A DNA stretch of 64,000 bases from Nostoc sp. LEGE 12450 (GTDB lineage Bacteria > Cyanobacteriota > Cyanobacteriia > Cyanobacteriales > Nostocaceae), in assembly GCF_015206895.1 (NCBI RefSeq), contig NZ_JADEXU010000026.1, forward strand, positions 1-64,000, in the 5' to 3' direction. Positions within the stretch are counted from its first letter, which is position 1, and each line of letters opens with the position of its first letter. Below the pieces are notes generated by a model, which was not told where the DNA came from, made no database searches, and saw nothing but the letters and a program-made list of their open reading frames with translations. The translations under genes were made by a program, and so were the position numbers. Below are positions 2,170 to 15,696 of the stretch, one piece after another.

Positions 2170-2565
2170 ATGTCAGAAACACCCCAAGATGACGGCATTT
2201 GGATTGTAACGGATGAAACTCCTAAAATATCGATTCCTGACGGTGCTAAAGGCGGGAGTATTAATAGAGCCAGTTGGGGAGAGGAAACTATCAGGGAAAG
2301 CACTGGTAGCAAAGGGGTAGGAGATGCCGTTAAGGTTAGCGCTCAAACATTAGAGCAAAATATGACTCACTTTCTCAAACTCGTGGGAAGTTTGTTTAGT
2401 CAAGCTGAACAGCAAGCAAAAGTCCACTCCAAGATGCAGCTAGATGAAATTGAGCTATCGGTAGAAATTAGTGCAGATGGGGAAGTTAAATTAATTGGCA
2501 GTGGTGTCAAAGCTGGGAGTAAAGGAGCAATTAAGCTGAAGTTCAAGCGCCAAGAATCACAGTGA
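2170..2565 (+). CDS. Small Pepco-like companion protein of the caspase gene
   Basis: A 131-residue soluble protein with no signal peptide. The N-terminus includes DDGIWIVTDE. A helical middle (about 55-90) is followed by a strand-rich end, LDEIELSVEISADGEVKLIG, then GSKGAIKLKFKRQ. This resembles the Pepco/Trypco type of effector-associated constant component, small domains encoded beside caspase- or trypsin-like effectors in NTP-dependent conflict systems. That assignment is from memory of the family and is not certain. The stop is one base before the ATG of the caspase gene, so the two are almost certainly co-translated. It may be an adaptor that holds or recruits the protease. Confidence 0.6.
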   Translation: MSETPQDDGIWIVTDETPKISIPDGAKGGSINRASWGEETIRESTGSKGVGDAVKVSAQTLEQNMTHFLKLVGSLFSQAEQQAKVHSKMQLDEIELSVEISADGEVKLIGSGVKAGSKGAIKLKFKRQESQ

Positions 2566-2566
2566 G

Positions 2567-4369
2567 ATGGCAAAAAATTGGGCGATCGCGATCGGAATTA
2601 ACCAGTATTATTATCTGCAACCGCTAAACTATGCCAAGCGGGATGCGCTGTTAATGCAAGAGTTCCTGAGCAATGAAGCCGGATTTGAGCGGATATTCTT
2701 CTTCTCTGATGACTCCCCTGAACTTGCTGGAAAATCGACTCGCCCAACTCGCACTAACTTGCTGCGAATCTTGCGACAGCTATTTGACAATCCCTTTATG
2801 GGAGGAGGGGATAATTTCTGGTTTTTCTTCAGTGGTCATGGAATGAGACACGGTGGACGTGATTATCTCATACCCTGTGATGGCGATCCAGAGGATGTTG
2901 AAAATACGGCAATTGCGATTAACGTTGTGACTGAACGCCTACGTCGCTGCGGCGCTGATAATGTTGTCTTGATTCTGGATGCTTGTCGTAGTCTAGGTAC
3001 TCGTGCTGGCGAAGGCATTGGGCGACAAACCGCAGAAGAAGCACGTCAACAAGGAGTTATCAGCATATTTTCCTGTAGTCCACAGGAGTATTCTTATGAA
3101 ATTGAGGCTTTACAACAAGGTGCTTTTACTACTGCACTACTAGAAGGGTTAGGAATTCAAGGTAAATGCGCTACTGTTGAACGATTGGATCAGTATCTCA
3201 AAGTTCGTGTGCCTGAACTGGTTCGCCAGCATAAGAATACAAAGCAAACACCTTATGTTATTGCTGAACCTGTGGATAAATGCCACCTAATACTTGTGCC
3301 ACGATATGCAACTCAAACAGATATCGCCACGCTGAAAAATGATGCTTACCAAGCAGAAGCCGACAGGAATTTAGATTTAGCAGAGCAATTATGGATTCGG
3401 GTATTAGCTGCGGCTTCAGGGCAAGATACAGTTGCGATCAAAGCAATTCAAAGAATTGAAAGGTTGCGGTGGGAACTTCAAGAACCATCTTCACCACAAC
3501 CTCATCCTAGTATTGAAAATTCCCCTAAGGGAATATTTACAGTTGAAAAAAATCGCTTAAAAACCTTTCAATTTGAAGTGGTTACGGTAAATGCAAAAGG
3601 AAATATCACTAACCGCCGTAATGAGGAAGCGAAATATTTTGAAGAAAATTTAGGGAATGGTGTCACCTTGGAAATGGTGCAGATACTAGGGGGAACCTTT
3701 ATGATGGGTTCACCAGAAAGAGAAGCAAAACGACTAGATCATGAAATTCCACTGCATCAAGTAACCGTTCCTAAGTTCTTCATGGGGAAATATGCAGTTA
3801 CCCAAGCACAGTATCAAGTAATTATGGGCAGTAATCCTTCTAAATTCAAAGGTGAGAAACGACCTGTAGAACGAGTTACTTGGGATGAAGCGGTAGAGTT
3901 TTGTAAAAAGTTGAGCCAGAAGACAGGAAAAACCTATCGACTACCTAGTGAAGCCGAATGGGAATATGCTTGTCGCGCCGGAACAACTACACCGTTTTAT
4001 TTTGGCGAAACGATTACCACAGATTTAGTTAACTACCACGGTGACTATCCTTACGGCGCTGCACCAAAGGGGGAATATCGTCAACAAACAATAGATGTAG
4101 AAAAATTTCCGCCTAATTCTTTCGGTTTATACGATATGCATGGTAATGTTTTGGAATGGTGTCTAGATGTATATAATAACAATTACCAGGGTGCGCCAAA
4201 AGATGGTAGTGCCTGGATGACTGGTAAAGATAATGATATAAAGCTCCTGCGTGGCAGTAGTTGGATCAACATTGCTAGGGATTGCCGTTCTGCCTATCGC
4301 GGTAGGTACGCGCGCGCGGATCGTAGCAGCAATGTTGGTTTTCGCGTGGTGGCTGTGGCTGTGGCGTGA
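2567..4369 (+). CDS. Caspase-like (C14) protease fused to FGE/SUMF1 C-type-lectin domain; putative DGR variable protein
   Basis: 600 residues. Residues 1-245 form a caspase/metacaspase p20-like domain with the dyad His91 (FFFSGHGMRHG) and Cys140 (LILDACRS). Residues 250-305 are helical, like a short TPR or linker. Residues 366-597 are a formylglycine-generating-enzyme/SUMF1 domain: GGTFMMGSPE, YRLPSEAEWEYACRAG, YDMHGNVLEWC, GFRVV. Such domains in bacteria are usually binding modules with a C-type-lectin fold. Residues 561-595 (LRGSSW to GFRVV) match the usual DGR variable region: fixed RG..W, CRSA and GFRVV words are separated by positions whose codons look like mutated AAC/AAT. Likely role: ligand-triggered protease in a conflict or programmed-cell-death system, with a diversified recognition surface. 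No reverse transcriptase lies in the window. Confidence 0.85.
   Translation: MAKNWAIAIGINQYYYLQPLNYAKRDALLMQEFLSNEAGFERIFFFSDDSPELAGKSTRPTRTNLLRILRQLFDNPFMGGGDNFWFFFSGHGMRHGGRDYLIPCDGDPEDVENTAIAINVVTERLRRCGADNVVLILDACRSLGTRAGEGIGRQTAEEARQQGVISIFSCSPQEYSYEIEALQQGAFTTALLEGLGIQGKCATVERLDQYLKVRVPELVRQHKNTKQTPYVIAEPVDKCHLILVPRYATQTDIATLKNDAYQAEADRNLDLAEQLWIRVLAAASGQDTVAIKAIQRIERLRWELQEPSSPQPHPSIENSPKGIFTVEKNRLKTFQFEVVTVNAKGNITNRRNEEAKYFEENLGNGVTLEMVQILGGTFMMGSPEREAKRLDHEIPLHQVTVPKFFMGKYAVTQAQYQVIMGSNPSKFKGEKRPVERVTWDEAVEFCKKLSQKTGKTYRLPSEAEWEYACRAGTTTPFYFGETITTDLVNYHGDYPYGAAPKGEYRQQTIDVEKFPPNSFGLYDMHGNVLEWCLDVYNNNYQGAPKDGSAWMTGKDNDIKLLRGSSWINIARDCRSAYRGRYARADRSSNVGFRVVAVAVA
4247..4351 (+). other. 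Candidate DGR variable region (VR)
   Basis: This covers codons 561-595 of the caspase-FGE gene. Constant words (CGTGGCAGTAGTTGG, TGCCGTTCTGCC, GGTTTTCGCGTGGTG) alternate with codons such as ATC, ATT, GCT, GAT, TAT, GGT, TAC, AGC and GTT, at places where related cyanobacterial DGR templates are remembered to carry AAC/AAT. That is the expected footprint of adenine-directed mutagenesis. No template repeat was seen in the window. Confidence 0.6.
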
Positions 4370-4660: not shown

Positions 4661-5203
4661 TTACTCTTTACCGATATTAGAGTCAAATACAATTCCTTGC
4701 CCAGCACCCCACGTAATATCATACGTACCCTGACGAACAGAACGATGAAAGCTGGAATATTCCCAATCTTTTGGAGCTTTCACTAAACCATGTTTGACAG
4801 GATTGTAGTGAATATATTCAAGGTGATTTTTAAAATCTACTTCGTCTCTAATCAAGTGTTCCCAAAAACTACGCTGCCAAATAGCCCTCTCTTTTTTATT
4901 TTGCCTAGAGGTAGATAGGTTTTCCTGTGATAAAGTAATACACTGGCGACTAAAATAGCTTTTGATCAAACGCCAACGAGTAGAAAAATTACAATCGCCC
5001 TGTGGTAATGTCCAAATACAGTGCAGATGATCTGGTAATAAAACAAAGGCATCAATTAGAAATGGGTGTTGTCGCATTACATAACTAAAAATATTTCTTA
5101 ATAAAGATACGTTAGTCGGTAAGCATAATAGTCTTTGTCTTTTATGGGTTACGAGTGTAAAAAAATAAGTGCCACCTTCTATTGTGGCTCGGCGATATTG
5201 CAT
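4661..5203 (-). CDS. REP-associated tyrosine transposase (Y1_Tnp, IS200-like)
   Basis: A HUH single-strand transposase of the RAYT kind, thought to cut and join REP hairpins. The HUH motif is DHLHCIW in LLPDHLHCIWTLP. The catalytic Tyr region is HLEYIHYNPVKHGLV, and the C-terminal DWEYSSFHR is typical of RAYTs. The ATG at 5203 gives the usual family start MQYRRATIEGGTYFFT (180 residues). A further ATG ten codons upstream (5233) is less likely. GTAGGTTGGGTT palindromes lie on both sides (4551-4634 and 5268-5341), as expected for a domesticated RAYT with its cognate REPs. Confidence 0.9.
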   Translation of the reverse strand: MQYRRATIEGGTYFFTLVTHKRQRLLCLPTNVSLLRNIFSYVMRQHPFLIDAFVLLPDHLHCIWTLPQGDCNFSTRWRLIKSYFSRQCITLSQENLSTSRQNKKERAIWQRSFWEHLIRDEVDFKNHLEYIHYNPVKHGLVKAPKDWEYSSFHRSVRQGTYDITWGAGQGIVFDSNIGKE

Positions 5204-5267
5204 TGAGTTAATTTTATGATGGTTATATTTCAATACGCTTGGGTTAGCGCCAAAAACCTTAAACTGT

Positions 5268-5679: not shown

Positions 5680-6048
5680 TTACTTCACAGATGTCACTGT
5701 TTGGTTTACTACTACGCGTGGTTTCTTGCGGTCTGACCTGCGCGTTCCACCAGCCATTTCATACTCATCACTATTTTTGCCATAGCAAGATGCAACATTC
5801 AACAGCATTTGCTCAGAATAAGTATTCAACTCACGTTCTGCTTCTAATAATGCATTGTGTGTCTTATCTACTATTGTTTGTGCTTGATTATAAGCGGCCA
5901 GCTTCTCTCGTAACTCAATTACTTTAGTGTTGTAAGTAGTAATTGAAAACCCATTACTAAAGTCTAACTTAGGGTTAATTGTCTGCATTCCTTCAATCCG
6001 TCGTTCAGCTTTGGTCAGTGACATGGAGTTTCGTTTCCGTTGCGTCAT
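5680..6048 (-). CDS. Small conserved cyanobacterial protein of unknown function
   Basis: 122 residues, no signal peptide or membrane segment. Residues 1-25 are basic (MTQRKRNSMSLTKAERR). Residues 45-85 form a probable coiled-coil helix (VIELREKLAAYNQAQTIVDK). A charged C-terminus contains YGKNSDEYEMAGGTRRSDRK. The last motif is remembered from small proteins scattered in Nostoc-type genomes, often near mobile DNA, but their function is not known. It stands alone on its strand. Confidence 0.6.
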   Translation of the reverse strand: MTQRKRNSMSLTKAERRIEGMQTINPKLDFSNGFSITTYNTKVIELREKLAAYNQAQTIVDKTHNALLEAERELNTYSEQMLLNVASCYGKNSDEYEMAGGTRRSDRKKPRVVVNQTVTSVK

Positions 6049-6958: not shown

Positions 6959-8251
6959 ATGTCTGAAGACTTATTAAACTCTTTTCAAGAAGCATACAGC
7001 AATCTCGAACTATTTCCGTTGATGGAACGGAACGAAATGGAAAGATTTAGAGTCGAATATGGTGATGATTTGATTGCAGACCTGAACCAATTAGTGGAAG
7101 ATAGTCCTAATGGAGACGGCAAAATTGTCTTTACAGGACATCGAGGATGTGGTAAGTCTACTTTGTTAGCTGAATTTAGCAGACAAATTCAAGATAAATA
7201 TTTTGTAGTTCTGTTTTCTATTGCCGATAAAATTGAAATGTCGGCGGTTAATCATATTAATATACTGTTTGCGATCGCAGTTAATTTAATGACAGAGGCA
7301 GAAGCACGCAAAGTTGATATTCCGCAATCGACTAAAGAAGCTCTTTATAAGTGGTTTGCTACCCGTACTCGCACTGAAGAATCTAATTTGCAAGCAGAAG
7401 TTAGTATAGGTTTTGACCTCTTAAAGTTGATTAGCTCTAAATTAAAAGCTGATGCTAGCGTTCGAGATGAAATTAAGCAAGAGTTTGAACGCAAGTTATC
7501 AGATTTAGTTGCAAGGATTAACGAAATAGCTGCTCTAATTCAAGCTGCAACAAAACAAAACGTTTTAGTAATTATTGATGATTTAGACAAACTTGACTTA
7601 GGTAGAGTTAACGAAATTTATCGAGATAACATTAAAGCTCTTTGTCAACCTAACTTTCAAATTATTTACACTATTCCGATCGCAGTTCTTCGGGAAACAT
7701 TTATTAGCACAATAATTGCTACTGAAACCAACGACCAAGTTGTGGCAATGCCTGTATTAAAAATTTTTGATAAAGGTAAAAATCGCTTTCCTAATGCTCA
7801 ACCTCGCCTAGAAGCAACAAAGATTCTCGGTGAAGTTTTACAAAAGCGGATTCCCAATGAATTAATCGCGGCAGAAACTGCTGAAAAAATTGTGATTTAC
7901 AGTGGTGGCGTATTGCGAGAGTTAATTCGGATTTCTAAAGAATGTTGCCGCATTTGTTTGCGAACTATCCGGCGAAATCCCTCAGCCGAAGTTATTATTG
8001 ATGATAAAATTCTTCTGCAAGCAATCAATAAAATACGCAATGATTTTTCGATACGCTTAGGAAAAACTGATATCGATATTTTGCAGAGCGTTTATGAACA
8101 ATTTATGCCCAACGATCCTAAACAAGCTGAGTTTTTAGATTTGTTACATGGGCTGTATGTTCTAGAATATCGCACTGATGAAACTTGGTATGATGTTCAT
8201 CCAATTATTATCGAAAGCTTGAAAAGACAGGGAGCCATTAATGCTAAATGA
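6959..8251 (+). CDS. P-loop ATPase (AAA/STAND-like), partner of the TPR protein
   Basis: 430 residues, cytosolic. Walker A is GHRGCGKST (60-68). Walker B is VLVIIDDLDKLD (about 200-211), whose IIDDLDK pattern is usual in AAA/STAND and ORC-like ATPases. A helical insert (about 145-195) lies between them. A candidate sensor region is QIIYTIPIAVL, and a winged-helix-like end (about 355-425) has IDILQSVYEQF and WYDVHPIIIESL. The stop overlaps the next ATG by 11 bases, which suggests fixed stoichiometry. Likely an NTP-driven switch or scaffold. The target is unknown. Confidence 0.8.
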   Translation: MSEDLLNSFQEAYSNLELFPLMERNEMERFRVEYGDDLIADLNQLVEDSPNGDGKIVFTGHRGCGKSTLLAEFSRQIQDKYFVVLFSIADKIEMSAVNHINILFAIAVNLMTEAEARKVDIPQSTKEALYKWFATRTRTEESNLQAEVSIGFDLLKLISSKLKADASVRDEIKQEFERKLSDLVARINEIAALIQAATKQNVLVIIDDLDKLDLGRVNEIYRDNIKALCQPNFQIIYTIPIAVLRETFISTIIATETNDQVVAMPVLKIFDKGKNRFPNAQPRLEATKILGEVLQKRIPNELIAAETAEKIVIYSGGVLRELIRISKECCRICLRTIRRNPSAEVIIDDKILLQAINKIRNDFSIRLGKTDIDILQSVYEQFMPNDPKQAEFLDLLHGLYVLEYRTDETWYDVHPIIIESLKRQGAINAK

Positions 8252-10001
8252 AGAATTATTTGATGAAGGAGAAAATCAAGATGCGTATGATGATTTAATT
8301 GTTTCTATTGAAGCTCAAAAACGAGGCTTAAATTTATTGATTGCGGTTTGCGATGATGCTAGCTTTCGTGATGAAATTATTGCTCAATATGAAGCTGAAC
8401 TACAACCTGCTTTCCGTCCATATCGAGCAACTTTAGCACGTCAGGAACCGAGCCTAAAAGCTGCCCTTAACCAACTGGTACAACAAGAAGAATATCTTCG
8501 TCAGCAGAATCCGGCGGTCATCACCGTAACGGGTGCTGAACAACTTTATTTTCTCAGGTTGGGAAATGAGCAATCGGAACAGGAAAAGTTTTTTGGTTAC
8601 TTACAGTGGACAAGGGAAGGATTGCGCGAATTTCCATTTGCGATCGTGCTTTGGGTAACTAATCAAATTTTAGTCAACTTAATTAAAAAAGCGCCTGATT
8701 TTTGGAGTTGGCGTAATGGTGTATTTCGGTTTGAATCTCAAAAGACAAATGCTATTCCTGGTAAAGAATTAGAAGCTATCCGCTTTGTTTTTCGAGATAC
8801 AGAATTAGCCAGCACAGATACTAATGAAAATAACCCCTTTTTCTTGCCTATTCAAGATTTGCAAAAACTAATCGAGAAAATAGAACAAGAACGGGGAACT
8901 AAAGACCCTACATTGGCTACTTTATACTCAAGATTGGGCGATATTTACCGCAGTAGATTAGATCGGGGTGAATCTCAAAATTATCAAGAAGAACAAGAAT
9001 TAGCAATTAAATATTGGCGACAGGCGAGTGAGCTACAAAATGAATTAGGTTTGCAGATAGATTTAGCTAATAGTCTCAACAATTTAGCCGGAATCTATCG
9101 TGCAACAGGACACTACAGCGAAGCCGAACCATTATATAAACAAGCTTTAGAACTGAGGAAACGCCTGCTAGGAGAAAATCATCCTTCTTTTGCTACTAGC
9201 TTGAATAATTTGGCAGGACTTTACAAATCTACTGGACAATATAGTAAAGCGGAACTTCTATATCAACAAGCTTTGGAACTGAGGAAACGCCTGTGGGGAG
9301 AAAACCATGCGGATGTCGCCGTCAGTCTGAACAATTTGGCATTACTATATGATGAGCAAGGACGTTATGACGAAGCAGAACCTCTGTATCTGCAATCATT
9401 AGAACTTGAAAAACGTTTGGTTGGTGAAAATCATCTTTCTTTCGCTCTTATACTGAATAATTTAGCGCTACTTTATTATCATCAAGGACGTTATACTGAA
9501 GCTGAACCATTGTCGCAACAAGCAATAGAATTAGATAAGCGATTTTTGGGAGAAGAGAATCCTGATGTTGCAACAGATTTGCATAATTTAGGATTGATAT
9601 ACCGCGCTCAAGGACGCTACGATCGAGCAGAATCTTTGTTTTTAGAATCCTTAGAACTGAAGCAGCGTCTATTGCAAAAGGCGCATCCACTTTTAGCAGA
9701 TACTATCTATGCTCTTGGCTATATGTACAGGGAGCAAGGACGCTACAATGAAGCGGAATCTTTATGTATAAAAGCCTTAGAACTTGATAAGCACCTATTG
9801 GGAGAAAATCATCCCAATGTTGCTGAAAGTCTGAATAATCTGGCAGAAATTTATCGTGAAACTGGACGTTACGGTGAAGCAGAACCGCTTTATTTGCAAG
9901 CTTTAGATATTTGTGAGCGAGTCTGGGGTGTAAATCATCACCGTAGTGTCTCTATTCGTCAAAATCTAGAAAAACTTAGTGTAGCAATGCGGGAGAATTA
10001 A
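8241..10001 (+). CDS. TPR protein with degenerate ATPase-like N-terminus
   Basis: 586 residues. Residues 1-190 look like a P-loop-fold domain without a Walker A: strand LLIAVCDDASF, then a Walker-B-like NPAVITVTGAEQL, then FPFAIVLWVTNQIL and FWSWRNGVFRFES. Residues 274-575 hold seven 42-residue kinesin-light-chain-type TPRs of the form LNNLA.LY...GRY.EAEPLY.QALEL.KRLLGENHP. The ATG overlaps the stop of the ATPase gene. The pair looks like a split STAND protein: NTPase on one chain, sensor/scaffold repeats on the other. The binding partner cannot be told from sequence. Confidence 0.8.
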   Translation: MLNEELFDEGENQDAYDDLIVSIEAQKRGLNLLIAVCDDASFRDEIIAQYEAELQPAFRPYRATLARQEPSLKAALNQLVQQEEYLRQQNPAVITVTGAEQLYFLRLGNEQSEQEKFFGYLQWTREGLREFPFAIVLWVTNQILVNLIKKAPDFWSWRNGVFRFESQKTNAIPGKELEAIRFVFRDTELASTDTNENNPFFLPIQDLQKLIEKIEQERGTKDPTLATLYSRLGDIYRSRLDRGESQNYQEEQELAIKYWRQASELQNELGLQIDLANSLNNLAGIYRATGHYSEAEPLYKQALELRKRLLGENHPSFATSLNNLAGLYKSTGQYSKAELLYQQALELRKRLWGENHADVAVSLNNLALLYDEQGRYDEAEPLYLQSLELEKRLVGENHLSFALILNNLALLYYHQGRYTEAEPLSQQAIELDKRFLGEENPDVATDLHNLGLIYRAQGRYDRAESLFLESLELKQRLLQKAHPLLADTIYALGYMYREQGRYNEAESLCIKALELDKHLLGENHPNVAESLNNLAEIYRETGRYGEAEPLYLQALDICERVWGVNHHRSVSIRQNLEKLSVAMREN

Positions 10002-10318: not shown

Positions 10319-10359
10319 GTTAAAAGGGCATACTAAAGCAAAATCTCATATTCTTGCCT

Positions 10360-10932
10360 ATGCCGCGACGACAAACCCCTCTGCAAACTGGCAACTTTTA
10401 CCATGTCTATAATCGGGGGAACAATCGCCAAAAGATTTTCTTTGAGCGTGAGAACTATATTTATTTTGTCCGGTTGATAAGGGAACATCTGATAACTAAT
10501 GCAGTAGATCTTGTTGCTTACTGTTTAATGCCCAATCATTATCACTTTTTAGTCTATCTGAGAGATGAAACTCTGTCTGAGGCAATGAAATCCCTCTCTC
10601 TTTCTTACACAAAGGCAATTAATAAGCGTTTTAATCGTTCTGGGGTGCTATTTCAGGGAAGGTTTCAAAGTATTCATATTTTACAAACTGACTATCTTCT
10701 CAACCTCTCACGTTATATTCATTTAAATCCAGTGAAAGCAGAACTGGTGCAGCAACCTGAAGAATGGGAGTTTTCCAGCTATTTAGAATATGCAGGATTA
10801 CGAGGAGGAACACTAGCCAAAACAGAGTATATCAAGATGCAAATTGAGTCAGAATTAGCTTATCAGCAATTTTTAACGGATCATAACCTACCTGATAGCG
10901 CTGGTTTCAAAAGACTGCTACTGGATGATTAG
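10360..10932 (+). CDS. REP-associated tyrosine transposase, second type
   Basis: 190 residues from the ATG at 10360 (a TTG two codons earlier is also possible). The N-terminus is the usual MPRRQTPLQTGNFYHVYNRG. The HUH motif is NHYHFLVYL in CLMPNHYHFLVYL. The catalytic Tyr region is LSRYIHLNPVKAELV, followed by EEWEFSSYLEY. It differs clearly from the RAYT at 4661-5203 and is bracketed by its own hairpin (AGATCCCCGACTTCT). The KAP gene stub precedes it. Confidence 0.92.
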   Translation: MPRRQTPLQTGNFYHVYNRGNNRQKIFFERENYIYFVRLIREHLITNAVDLVAYCLMPNHYHFLVYLRDETLSEAMKSLSLSYTKAINKRFNRSGVLFQGRFQSIHILQTDYLLNLSRYIHLNPVKAELVQQPEEWEFSSYLEYAGLRGGTLAKTEYIKMQIESELAYQQFLTDHNLPDSAGFKRLLLDD

Positions 10933-12332: not shown

Positions 12333-13649
12333 TCAAAGTGGACTGCTATCATGAGACTCAATTTGCTTTTTAGTAATCTTTGCAATGCTGCAATTGTTTT
12401 TGCAGACTCCTTTTTTAGCTACTGATTTGGCTGTTAGGCTATTCACATTGGCATTAGTAAATCGTTGCTCAACAAATTTTTCTATAAAATTATTTAATTG
12501 AGTAGGTTTGTTTGGAGACGATGCACTTGTATTAATAAATGTATAGATTAAAATTAGTACTATAAAACTAGTGGTAGCACCAAGCCCTATTCCTAGAAGC
12601 AAAAGAAAGTTTCTATAATTTAGCAAATAGGTATCATCAGCATTTTGGTTGATGCCAGCAGATTCTGATGACTGTGGCAACAGCAGAGTAGAATTAAGTG
12701 CTTGCAAAGCTTCTGTAGCAGACTGATAACGCTGGTTGTAGCGATCGCGAACCATTGTATCTAAAACATTTGCAAGAGCATCACTTACCTGTACCTGATC
12801 GCGCCAGAGAACTTCTCCAGTATTGGGATCTTCTTTTATTTGCTCAGGGATTAAACCTGTCAAAGCTTGAATGCCTATCATCCCTACTGCATAGATATCG
12901 CTGCAAAGTTTTGGTTTTCCTTTAGCCTGTTCGCTTGGCATATAACCAGGAGTCCCAACAGCAATAGTTAAACCTGCTCCCAAAGCACCAATTTTCTTAA
13001 TACTCCCAAAGTCAATTAGCACAATCTTCTGATCAGAGTACCGCCGCATTAAATTTTGGGGCTTAATATCCCGATGAATAATGTTATTTTGATGGACGAA
13101 TGCCAGTACTTCCAGAATGTCTTTTAATAAACTTAAGACTGCACTCTCGCTCAGACGCTGACCTGAGACAATTTCTTGGGTTAACGCATGACCATCAATA
13201 AATTCTTGGACTAAATAGAAATCTCCATCTTCATCAAAATGGGCAAACAGTCTAGGAATTTGATCGTGGTCGTTGCCTAGCTGGTATAAAACTTCCGCTT
13301 CTCGATCAAATAACTTTTTAGCGATAGGTAGAACAGCAGGATTGGAATCTTTTGGTTGGAAATGTTTGACCACGCAATGGGGTTGTCCTGGTAAATCTAG
13401 GTCTACGGCTAAGTATGTATCACCAGAGCCTCCGCTTCCTAAGTGCTTGATAATTTCAAAGCGATTCCGAAGTGTTTTTCTGGTGAGAGAGTATTGATGC
13501 ATGTTACGTCTAGCACCTGCTAACAAGTAAGTATTACCAGAACCTCCGCTTTCCAGGAGTTTGACAGTCTCAAAGCGACTCCGAAGTTTTTTTCTAACTA
13601 GAGGGTTCTGGCTCATGTGGCGTATACTACTTGTTAATTTACTGACCAT
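12333..13649 (-). CDS. Membrane-anchored Hanks-type Ser/Thr protein kinase with duplicated N-terminal loop
   Basis: 438 residues. Kinase domain at about 64-330: glycine-rich loop GSGGSGDTYL (71-80), ATP lysine K95 (CVVKHF), catalytic HRDIKPQN with D194, DFG at 213-215, then GTPGYMPSEQ. One membrane segment (about 348-370) is followed by a C-terminal tail of about 65 residues, presumably outside the cytoplasm. Residues 12-42 are an imperfect copy of residues 50-80, shifted by exactly 38 codons, so the glycine-rich loop occurs twice (ESGGSGNTYL, then GSGGSGDTYL). The authentic start may be internal, at codon 12 or 50. Confidence 0.88.
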   Translation of the reverse strand: MVSKLTSSIRHMSQNPLVRKKLRSRFETVKLLESGGSGNTYLLAGARRNMHQYSLTRKTLRNRFEIIKHLGSGGSGDTYLAVDLDLPGQPHCVVKHFQPKDSNPAVLPIAKKLFDREAEVLYQLGNDHDQIPRLFAHFDEDGDFYLVQEFIDGHALTQEIVSGQRLSESAVLSLLKDILEVLAFVHQNNIIHRDIKPQNLMRRYSDQKIVLIDFGSIKKIGALGAGLTIAVGTPGYMPSEQAKGKPKLCSDIYAVGMIGIQALTGLIPEQIKEDPNTGEVLWRDQVQVSDALANVLDTMVRDRYNQRYQSATEALQALNSTLLLPQSSESAGINQNADDTYLLNYRNFLLLLGIGLGATTSFIVLILIYTFINTSASSPNKPTQLNNFIEKFVEQRFTNANVNSLTAKSVAKKGVCKNNCSIAKITKKQIESHDSSPL

Positions 13650-15069: not shown

Positions 15070-15696
15070 TCACAGGAGATAGAGTAATCCGAACAAAATA
15101 ATCCAAATCACGTCAACGAAGTGCCAGTAGATTTCGGCTGCTTCAATGCCAAAGTGCTTTTCGTTACTATAGTGACCCGGAAGGCGCGATCGCCACAACA
15201 CGGCAACAATGGCCAAAACGCCAATAGTAACGTGCAATCCGTGGAAACCAGTCAAAACGTAAAATGCACTAGCAAATAAATTGGTAGTCAAACCAAATTC
15301 TAAATGAGTATATTCATATACTTGACCCACCAAGAAAATAGCACCCATTGCAGCAGTAATTGCTAACCAAATCTGGGCACCCCGTGCATCATTCTTTTTG
15401 ATAGCAGTGTCAGCATTGTGCATGACAAAACTACTAGAAATTAGATTGATGGTGTTGACTCCAGGTAGCAATAGTTCTAATTCTGGGGTACCTGCTGGCG
15501 GCCATGCAGGTAAGGTAGCACGGAAAGCCAAGTAGGCTCCGAATAGCCCCATAAAAATCATCCCTTCAGCAATCAGGAAGACAACTAGCCCAAACATACG
15601 ATGGTCTGGATGTTCTTCGTGATGACCAACGGATGCTTCCGCCGTATGGTGATGATTGAGTTCGGTTTTAGCTGGGTCAATAGTTTGACTTTGCAT
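15070..15696 (-). CDS. ctaE: Cytochrome c oxidase subunit III
   Basis: Core membrane subunit of the aa3-type oxidase, without redox centres. The chosen ATG at 15696 gives MQSQTIDPAKTELNHHHT and 208 residues. An open extension upstream to 15810 reads through a low-complexity repeat block and is rejected as coding. Five hydrophobic segments are visible. Family sequence includes VVFLIAEGMIFMGLFGAYLA, then YVLTGFHGLHVTIG, and the end YWHFVDVIWIILFGLLYLL. Last gene of the ctaCDE cluster. Confidence 0.95.
   Translation of the reverse strand: MQSQTIDPAKTELNHHHTAEASVGHHEEHPDHRMFGLVVFLIAEGMIFMGLFGAYLAFRATLPAWPPAGTPELELLLPGVNTINLISSSFVMHNADTAIKKNDARGAQIWLAITAAMGAIFLVGQVYEYTHLEFGLTTNLFASAFYVLTGFHGLHVTIGVLAIVAVLWRSRLPGHYSNEKHFGIEAAEIYWHFVDVIWIILFGLLYLL

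What the first reader, a model, noticed from the sequence alone, without database searches (positions are those of the whole stretch)
6959..10001. Coupled ATPase and TPR/degenerate-ATPase pair: possible split STAND system
An AAA/STAND-like ATPase overlaps by 11 bases a protein with an ATPase-like N-domain lacking Walker A and seven kinesin-light-chain TPRs. One active and one inactive NTPase domain plus a repeat sensor is a design seen in conflict and signalling switches. The neighbourhood (caspase module, RAYTs, KAP stub) is defence-island-like.
Basis: partly seen in the sequence, partly recalled or inferred. Interest (0 to 1): 0.6.

Follow-up and report, generated by a model that had tools for sequence, protein, structure and literature searches.

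The report
Coupled ATPase and TPR-protein gene pair
Two overlapping genes in a Nostoc-type cyanobacterium encode an ATP-driven protein and a partner made of an unnamed domain plus protein-binding repeats; related gene pairs recur in cyanobacteria, and this copy looks like a conserved regulatory switch rather than a fast-evolving anti-phage sensor.

Summary
ATPase 6959-8251 (intact Walker A and B) overlaps by 11 nt the 586-aa protein 8241-10001, which has a Walker-less N-domain and seven 42-aa kinesin-light-chain TPRs. The pairing is systematic: ATPases of this family are followed by an N-domain protein in 36 of 39, 16 of 17, 17 of 17 and 48 of 49 cases, and sampled genomes of the genus show 3-9 N-domain matches each. 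Partners carry TPRs, nSTAND1-WD40 or NACHT-TPR; the type follows the ATPase tree. The ATPase is ORC/Cdc6-STAND-like. The N-domain has no family model and no Walker A in 268 rows; its fold is unresolved, so 'degenerate ATPase' is unproven.

The defence-island argument is weak for this copy: it is in 23 of 23 sampled genomes of the genus and under purifying selection (median omega 0.06 ATPase, 0.11 TPRs) like ndhK/ndhJ, unlike the nearby caspase-FGE gene (0.36, n=4). Shared ndh/pstS/kinase/cox neighbours were seen in 26 of 49 loci. Outside the genus the subfamily is patchy (48 of 243 genomes).

Best reading: a two-protein NTP-driven receptor switch. It resembles the published nSTAND2 two-gene design; membership could not be tested.

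The parts
6959..8251 (+). ATPase gene, 430 aa, ORC/Cdc6-STAND-like P-loop protein; reading the C-terminal end as a winged helix is inference
   Evidence: 90-98% identical in the 22 other sampled genomes of the genus; median omega 0.060 over 47 loci
7133..7162 (+). Walker A (TGHRGCGKST, residues 59-68)
   Evidence: G60 H61 G63 G65 K66 S67 invariant in 27 of 27 non-redundant family rows; motif form in 188 of 189 ATPase ORFs of at least 380 aa
7562..7597 (+). Walker B strand (VLVIIDDLDKLD, residues 202-213)
   Evidence: D207, L209 and D210 invariant in 27 of 27 rows
7901..7918 (+). SGGVLR motif (residues 315-320), read here as a sensor-2-like lid motif (name recalled)
   Evidence: S315 G316 G317 R320 invariant in 27 of 27 rows
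8241..10001 (+). Partner gene, 586 aa: unnamed N-domain plus TPR array; first 11 nt overlap the ATPase gene
8268..8744 (+). N-domain (about residues 10-168), no Walker A; conserved R125 and PDFWSW
   Evidence: in 268 rows the Arg is kept in 97%, the Asp in 99%, the last Trp in 97%; no convincing Pfam, NCBIfam or PADLOC family in 36 members
8613..8615 (+). Near-invariant Arg125 (QWTREGL), candidate contact or finger residue (inference)
   Evidence: 97% of 268 rows; coupled with the WSW Trp in a weak covariation analysis
9066..9947 (+). Seven 42-aa kinesin-light-chain-type TPRs (residues 276-569)
   Evidence: TPR_10, 7 stretches

Best explanation
The two genes encode a dedicated two-protein switch. 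The ORC/Cdc6-STAND-like ATPase is the motor or timer and binds its partner through the partner's conserved N-domain. The TPR array of the partner is the receptor that reads a cellular protein or peptide ligand. Ligand binding would release or trigger the ATPase, which would oligomerise with the partner (perhaps as a mixed ring) and act on a target not encoded in the pair, possibly DNA or another signalling protein. Shown: two genes, strong linkage, intact ATPase motifs, Walker-less N-domain, TPRs, stable match between ATPase clade and partner type, purifying selection. Inferred: physical complex, oligomerisation, ligand, output. For this copy I think a conserved regulatory role in Nostoc more likely than fast-evolving phage sensing.
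For: Linkage in 36/39, 16/17, 17/17 and 48/49, with the -11 overlap in 44 of 48 genome contigs pairs, which suggests translational coupling. Active-site residues invariant in the ATPase family; the ATPase model, mean pLDDT 57.8 only, matches Cdc6/Orc1, RdrA, the BrxC N-terminal domain and TnsC. Partner C-termini are TPR, nSTAND1-WD40 or NACHT-TPR, and the type needs only 3 changes on the ATPase tree of 76 rows. Median omega 0.060 ATPase, 0.085 N-domain, 0.114 TPR over 47 loci, in the range of ndhK 0.081 (n=6) and ndhJ 0.121 (n=8) and below Pepco 0.36 (n=6) and caspase-FGE 0.36 (n=4). Present in 23 of 23 sampled genomes of the genus.
Against: No experiment or co-folding shows that the two proteins bind. 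Neighbourhood linkage could mark co-regulation only. The N-domain fold is unknown. The subfamily is patchy outside the genus (48 of 243) and some copies look interrupted (L197, L207; L122; stops inside several distant hits), as for a dispensable or conflict system, though assembly errors are not excluded. Family relatives lie on cyanobacterial plasmids. A shared genomic place was seen in only 26 of 49 loci. Purifying selection as such does not exclude a defence role.
Confidence: 0.5

Rival explanations
1. It is an anti-phage or self/non-self conflict switch of the STAND kind: TPRs sense an invader, the ATPase assembles with the partner, and an abortive response follows through other proteins.
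For: Several paralogous partners carry nSTAND1-WD40 or NACHT-TPR; multi-copy family (3-9 N-domain matches per sampled genome of the genus); family relatives on plasmids; patchy at order level. Papers of which I read passages predict such systems in multicellular cyanobacteria (PMC7159879, PMC8195603).
Against: This copy is in all 23 sampled genomes of the genus and constrained like ndhK/ndhJ; no effector domain was recognised in either protein; the partner's C-terminal type does not swap quickly; PADLOC matches of the ATPases are weak.
Confidence: 0.25
2. It is a member of the published nSTAND2 two-gene class (active plus eroded STAND, eroded one fused to a variable module), with TPRs or nSTAND1-WD40 in place of GT4 or HEPN. 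This does not exclude either functional reading above.
For: Two-gene layout and one partner without nucleotide motifs match the description (PMC8195603 section 15, read in full). DAP3 is among the weak Pfam matches of the ATPase (5 of 27 members), and the paper places nSTAND2 near Dap3.
Against: No nSTAND2 alignment was available. The N-domain was not shown to be STAND. No GT4 or HEPN module was listed for the four large paralogous partners scanned (best 25 families each); other partners were not scanned with Pfam for these, apart from L195.
Confidence: 0.35
3. The pair is a housekeeping neighbour linked to NDH-1 function: ATPase and TPR protein act as an assembly factor for the complex that includes the ndhCKJ products encoded just upstream.
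For: ndhJ lies upstream of the pair in the window and in 8 of 49 genome contigs pair loci, among them Brasilonema and Scytonema, and ndhC, K and J in 4 of 20 order-level loci (L188, L190, L192, L206). TPR proteins often serve in assembly (general knowledge).
Against: In 16 of 20 order-level loci no ndhC, K or J was found within the flank; in 41 of 49 genome-contig loci ndhJ was not within the short flank; paralogues lie elsewhere.
Confidence: 0.1

Closest known systems
nSTAND2 two-gene system (eLife 2021, PMC8195603, section 15 with the legend of Fig. 6C)
   Same: Two-gene operon; one intact and one motif-less protein; the motif-less one carries the extra module
   Different: Reported modules are mostly GT4 or HEPN, here TPR, nSTAND1-WD40 or NACHT-TPR; the inactive STAND fold is claimed there, not demonstrated here; described there as mobile, while this copy is in every sampled genome of its genus
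iSTAND of MoxR-vWA ternary systems (eLife 2020, PMC7159879, passages read)
   Same: Inactive NTPase-like component proposed beside an active AAA+ ATPase; found in cyanobacteria
   Different: No MoxR or vWA gene among the window neighbours scanned with Pfam; the ATPase here is ORC/STAND-like
BREX BrxC-BrxB
   Same: Active ORC-like ATPase with a motif-less partner; the BrxC N-terminal domain (9zll_B) is among the fold matches of the ATPase
   Different: The BrxB likeness of the N-domain does not beat the reversed BrxB alignment (P 0.011 against 0.0055); in the BREX stretches fetched that show both genes BrxB precedes BrxC, here the ATPase comes first; no other BREX gene among the Pfam-scanned neighbours
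nSTAND1-WD40 and NACHT-TPR proteins (Pfam PF20703, PF05729)
   Same: The same modules occur in paralogous partners
   Different: The window protein has TPRs only, its NTPase is encoded apart

Membership tests
STAND / ORC-Cdc6-like P-loop ATPase (6959-8251) | Walker A and B with an ORC/STAND-like core | tested here: met
   Walker A/B invariant; AAA_22 in 27 of 27, AAA_16 25 of 27, nSTAND_NTPase5 18 of 27 members; fold match Cdc6 at E 2e-5 on a pLDDT 57.8 model
STAND / ORC-Cdc6-like P-loop ATPase (6959-8251) | Helical lid and winged helix after the core | tested here: inconclusive
   Helices follow the core in the model, but its C-terminal part has low confidence
Inactive STAND (N-domain of 8241-10001) | P-loop (STAND) fold | tested here: inconclusive
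   Model pLDDT 46, no fold match below E 0.87, hhalign to the ATPase not significant, no PDB sequence match better than E 0.077, covariation on 268 rows not decisive
Inactive STAND (N-domain of 8241-10001) | No Walker A | tested here: met
   0 of 268 rows have a Walker A-like motif; loss from an ancestor is not shown
nSTAND2 two-gene system | Two-gene operon, one protein with intact and one without NTP motifs | tested here: met
   operon inferred from the 11-nt overlap
nSTAND2 two-gene system | Sequence kinship with the published nSTAND2 family | not testable with these tools
   Supplementary files cannot be opened here; no model named nSTAND2 appeared in the listed Pfam matches
nSTAND2 two-gene system | Conserved arginine finger in both proteins | tested here: inconclusive
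   N-domain R125 kept in 97% of 268 rows; R297 and R320 invariant in the ATPase; none proven to be a finger
MoxR-vWA-iSTAND ternary system | MoxR ATPase and vWA gene beside the iSTAND gene | tested here: not met
   None of the Pfam-scanned genes between 143 and 13649 nor COX3 at 15070 is MoxR or vWA; paralogous loci were not examined for this
BrxB (PF08747) | Sequence match to BrxB | tested here: not met
   No BrxB hit in 36 N-domains; hhalign P 0.011 is no better than the reversed BrxB alignment, 0.0055
Defence island resident (this copy) | Sporadic presence and relaxed or positive selection | tested here: not met
   In 23 of 23 sampled genomes of the genus; median omega 0.06-0.11. Patchy at order level
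Defence island resident (this copy) | Variable locus rich in defence genes | tested here: inconclusive
   26 of 49 loci share ndh, pstS, kinase or cox neighbours; 6 share only the caspase, Pepco, RAYT or orf122 genes; 17 share none within short flanks; a caspase gene is near in the window and in 9 of 49

The most novel reading that the evidence does not exclude
A so far unnamed family of split receptor switches, expanded in Nostoc and related cyanobacteria: a constant ORC/STAND ATPase plus a constant new domain (signature TRE...PDFWSW) that couples it to a few receptor modules (TPR, nSTAND1-WD40, NACHT-TPR), with one copy kept throughout the genus for a core cellular role.
Probability: 0.4. 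Interest if true: 0.6.

Novelty: new variant of a known kind. Interest (0 to 1): 0.42.

Why it matters
I found no assigned function for these multi-copy, conserved gene pairs with STAND-like ATPases, and the N-domain has no convincing model in Pfam, NCBIfam or PADLOC. A coupled pair with a constant core and a few stable receptor types gives a simple handle: one deletion and one pull-down in a laboratory Nostoc would help to tell whether this design is regulation or immunity. The contrast inside one window between a constrained pair and a faster-evolving caspase module also warns against reading a STAND-like gene near a caspase as defence without further evidence.

Tried and rejected

BrxB idea: a first hhalign with 8 BrxB rows gave the lowest P (0.008) after the families that themselves contain the N-domain. 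With 18 BrxB rows P was 0.011. In favour: the 34 clustered families, reversed, gave no P below 0.056. Against: the reversed 18-row BrxB alignment itself scored better, 0.0055. I dropped it as unproven. BrxC: hhalign with the ATPase covers 52 columns around Walker A (P 2e-4); other Walker A-bearing families also score that way.

Covariation on 268 N-domain rows (effective number about 131 at 80% identity) did not settle strand order: of 20 strand-pair tests the lowest were b1-b4 antiparallel p 0.02, b1-b3 antiparallel p 0.07 and b1-b4 parallel p 0.10.

The script by which partner types were first labelled missed the TPRs (51 'other'); it was redone with a local TPR profile. In one search, 20 of 75 stayed 'other'; for the tree I filed 19 of them as TPR after reading the printed sequences by eye, and L195 apart (TPR plus an AAA-like domain).

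A first wording of this report called the locus fixed; a recount showed shared ndh/pstS/kinase/cox neighbours in 26 of 49 loci, so that claim was cut down.

Relatives outside Cyanobacteria were not reached: A4 could not be used for viral contigs, a locus could not serve as centre, a viral scan with a 73-aa piece of the N-domain found no relative, and plasmid hits were all cyanobacterial. The genome-contig scan finds close relatives only.

Literature: in the listings of searches no title or abstract start named this pair; of these papers four were opened in part (PMC7159879, PMC8195603, PMC12839542, PMC10907252). The library holds open PubMed Central papers only.
Full report
WHAT IS THERE. The window lies in a genome of 8.8 Mb; the nearest named loci are Desmonostoc muscorum and Nostoc species at 96% protein identity, so it is a Nostoc-type cyanobacterium. 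ORF 6959-8251 (+, 430 aa) and ORF 8241-10001 (+, 586 aa) overlap by 11 nt. The first passes Pfam cut-offs for AAA_16, AAA_22 and KAP_NTPase and holds GHRGCGKST and VIIDDLDKLD. The second has, above cut-off, TPR-type and similar repeat matches only, with best stretches from about residue 250 on and seven TPR_10 stretches, seen as seven 42-aa units at residues 276-569. The first 178 residues on their own match no Pfam family up to E 1.

A FAMILY OF PAIRS. The N-domain and the ATPase were sought in 39 genomes (own and relatives): 32 and 33 of 39 have matches at E <= 0.001. All 23 genomes of the genus (own included) hold a close copy of each (N-domain 84-100%, ATPase 90-100% identity), and each of the 23 has 3 to 9 N-domain matches in all. 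I then asked in fetched loci whether ATPases of at least 300 aa are followed within 1,200 nt on the same strand by an N-domain protein: 36 of 39 in 38 loci picked by hand from the ATPase hits, 16 of 17 in loci picked for the N-domain, 17 of 17 in loci of the TPR subfamily, 48 of 49 in genome-contig loci. The last three sets were chosen on the N-domain side, so only the first tests the linkage without that bias. Of the five misses, L135, L177 and L048 do hold an N-domain that my ORF list missed, near the end of the stretch; L118 is an orphan with an aroE-like gene downstream by my reading, and L145 has an extra ATPase. A few N-domain proteins of 157-167 aa have no such ATPase directly before them (L137, L144, L187).

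PARTNER MODULES. Of four large paralogous partners scanned, three carry WD40 repeats (two list nSTAND1 among the best 25 families; the third, L134, bears a Walker A of that form) and one carries NACHT plus TPRs. A motif and profile labelling of 75 pairs gave 23 nSTAND1 type, 3 NACHT type, 1 TPR with another AAA-like domain and 48 TPR; 19 of the TPR labels were assigned by eye. On an ATPase tree of 76 rows (75 and the window) these labels need 3 changes, the least possible, against 23.8 in shuffles. Near-copies inflate such clustering, the search was quick, and the program warned of long branches. So the receptor type stays with its ATPase clade and does not swap freely.

THE ATPASE. In 27 non-redundant rows G60 H61 G63 G65 K66 S67, D207 L209 D210, R297, S315 G316 G317 R320, Y404, W410 and a few others are invariant. 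188 of 189 ORFs of at least 380 aa keep the Walker A form. AAA_22 is matched by 27 of 27, nSTAND_NTPase5 by 18 of 27, ORC-CDC6-like by 3 of 27 (E <= 0.01). A model of modest quality (pLDDT 57.8) finds Cdc6/Orc1, RdrA of RADAR, the BrxC N-terminal domain and TnsC. This is an ORC/STAND-like ATPase; the finer clade is not fixed.

THE N-DOMAIN. 268 aligned rows contain no Walker A-like motif. Most conserved are an Arg (97%; R125 here), the motif PDFWxW (P 91%, D 99%, F 84%, last W 97%), a Gly (96%), a Leu (95%) and a Phe (93%). With 36 members, no Pfam, NCBIfam or PADLOC family matched more than two of them, and no match was better than E 0.001 (best 0.032, 0.0045 and 0.0012). A consensus found nothing better than E 0.032 in Pfam, and the profile nothing better than E 0.077 in the PDB. 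The model is unusable (pLDDT 46) and gave no fold match (best E 0.87). hhalign against the ATPase family is not significant (E 0.04, probability 1.3%), though the piece aligned includes the Walker B strand. A BrxB likeness appeared (P 0.008; 0.011 with more rows) but did not beat the reversed BrxB alignment (0.0055). Covariation is not decisive. So 'inactive ATPase' is possible but unproven; what is shown is an unnamed domain without nucleotide motifs.

CONTEXT AND EVOLUTION. Upstream are ndhC, ndhK, ndhJ (143-1756), then Pepco (2170-2565), a caspase-FGE gene (2567-4369), a RAYT and a 122-aa ORF; downstream a second RAYT, a PstS-like gene, a Ser/Thr kinase, COX3 and further cox-like ORFs read by eye. 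Of 49 genome-contig loci with the pair, 26 share at least one of ndhC/K/J, pstS, the kinase or COX3 at 70% identity or more (ndhJ in 8, pstS in 20); 6 more share only the caspase, Pepco, RAYT or 122-aa genes; 17 share none within the held flank (for most about 4.7 kb upstream and 6 kb downstream, less in some). In Brasilonema and Scytonema (L041, L043) ndhJ ends about 0.2 kb before the ATPase and no caspase gene was found in the stretch. In 20 order-level loci of the TPR subfamily, 4 have ndhCKJ next to the pair. Median omega against the window copy over 47 loci: ATPase 0.060, N-domain 0.085, TPR 0.114. With the same method: ndhK 0.081 (n=6), ndhJ 0.121 (n=8), pstS 0.166 (n=20), kinase 0.233 (n=20), orf122 0.323 (n=17), Pepco 0.36 (n=6), caspase-FGE 0.36 (n=4). 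The small n come from short flanks and absence. Partner proteins range from 439 to 1119 aa among more distant orthologues (L043, L049) but are 580-616 aa in most of the loci. Pairwise omega averages over sites and could hide a few fast sites.

RESULTS THAT POINT THE OTHER WAY. The subfamily is found at E <= 1e-40 in 48 of 243 genomes of the order, the N-domain at E <= 1e-8 in 37 of 146 genomes of the phylum sample. Some ATPase genes look interrupted (L197, L207; L122; hits with stops inside). Relatives of the ATPase lie on 8 plasmid records and of the N-domain consensus on 7, all cyanobacterial. About half of the loci do not show the shared neighbours. These fit a dispensable, mobile, possibly defensive family.

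READING. The family looks like a two-protein NTP-driven receptor switch, and the window copy like a settled, core member in its genus. I put 0.5 on the switch reading with a regulatory role, 0.25 on a conflict role for this copy. The closest published design is nSTAND2: two genes, one intact and one eroded STAND, the latter fused to a variable module (PMC8195603: section 15 in full; other passages). PMC7159879 (passages) and PMC12839542 (passages) give the iSTAND idea; PMC10907252 (passages) discusses nSTAND1/NACHT sensors in multicellular bacteria. Membership in nSTAND2 could not be tested because its alignment was out of reach.

VERDICT. It is a new variant of a known kind with an unnamed domain, of moderate interest.

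Noticed in passing
window 2170-4369: A Pepco gene (Pfam, E 3e-36) sits directly before a caspase-FGE gene; both show a higher omega (0.36; n=6 and n=4) than the pair. Pepco was seen in 8 and the caspase gene in 9 of 49 pair loci, with short flanks.
   Followed up: partly
window 12333-13649: A Ser/Thr kinase that matches a PADLOC PD-T4-6 model very well (E 3e-102), yet it lies with pstS in 20 and with COX3 in 19 of 49 pair loci, so the defence label may be misleading.
   Followed up: partly
window 4661-5233 and 10354-10932: Two RAYT-type (REP-associated) transposases flank the region of the pair.
   Followed up: no
window 5680-6048: A 122-aa ORF of unknown family is a neighbour of the pair in 18 of 49 loci with an omega of 0.32 (n=17).
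   Followed up: no
L144:5107-8001 compared with L137: A stand-alone N-domain gene of 167 aa has similar neighbours in two genomes; in one of them a gene that reads like a TIR protein (by eye) and a 213-aa ORF lie just before it.
   Followed up: no
L145:4859-10581: One locus holds an ATPase, a 156-aa N-domain protein and a 1304-aa N-domain protein in a row, which could be a duplication or a split of the partner.
   Followed up: no
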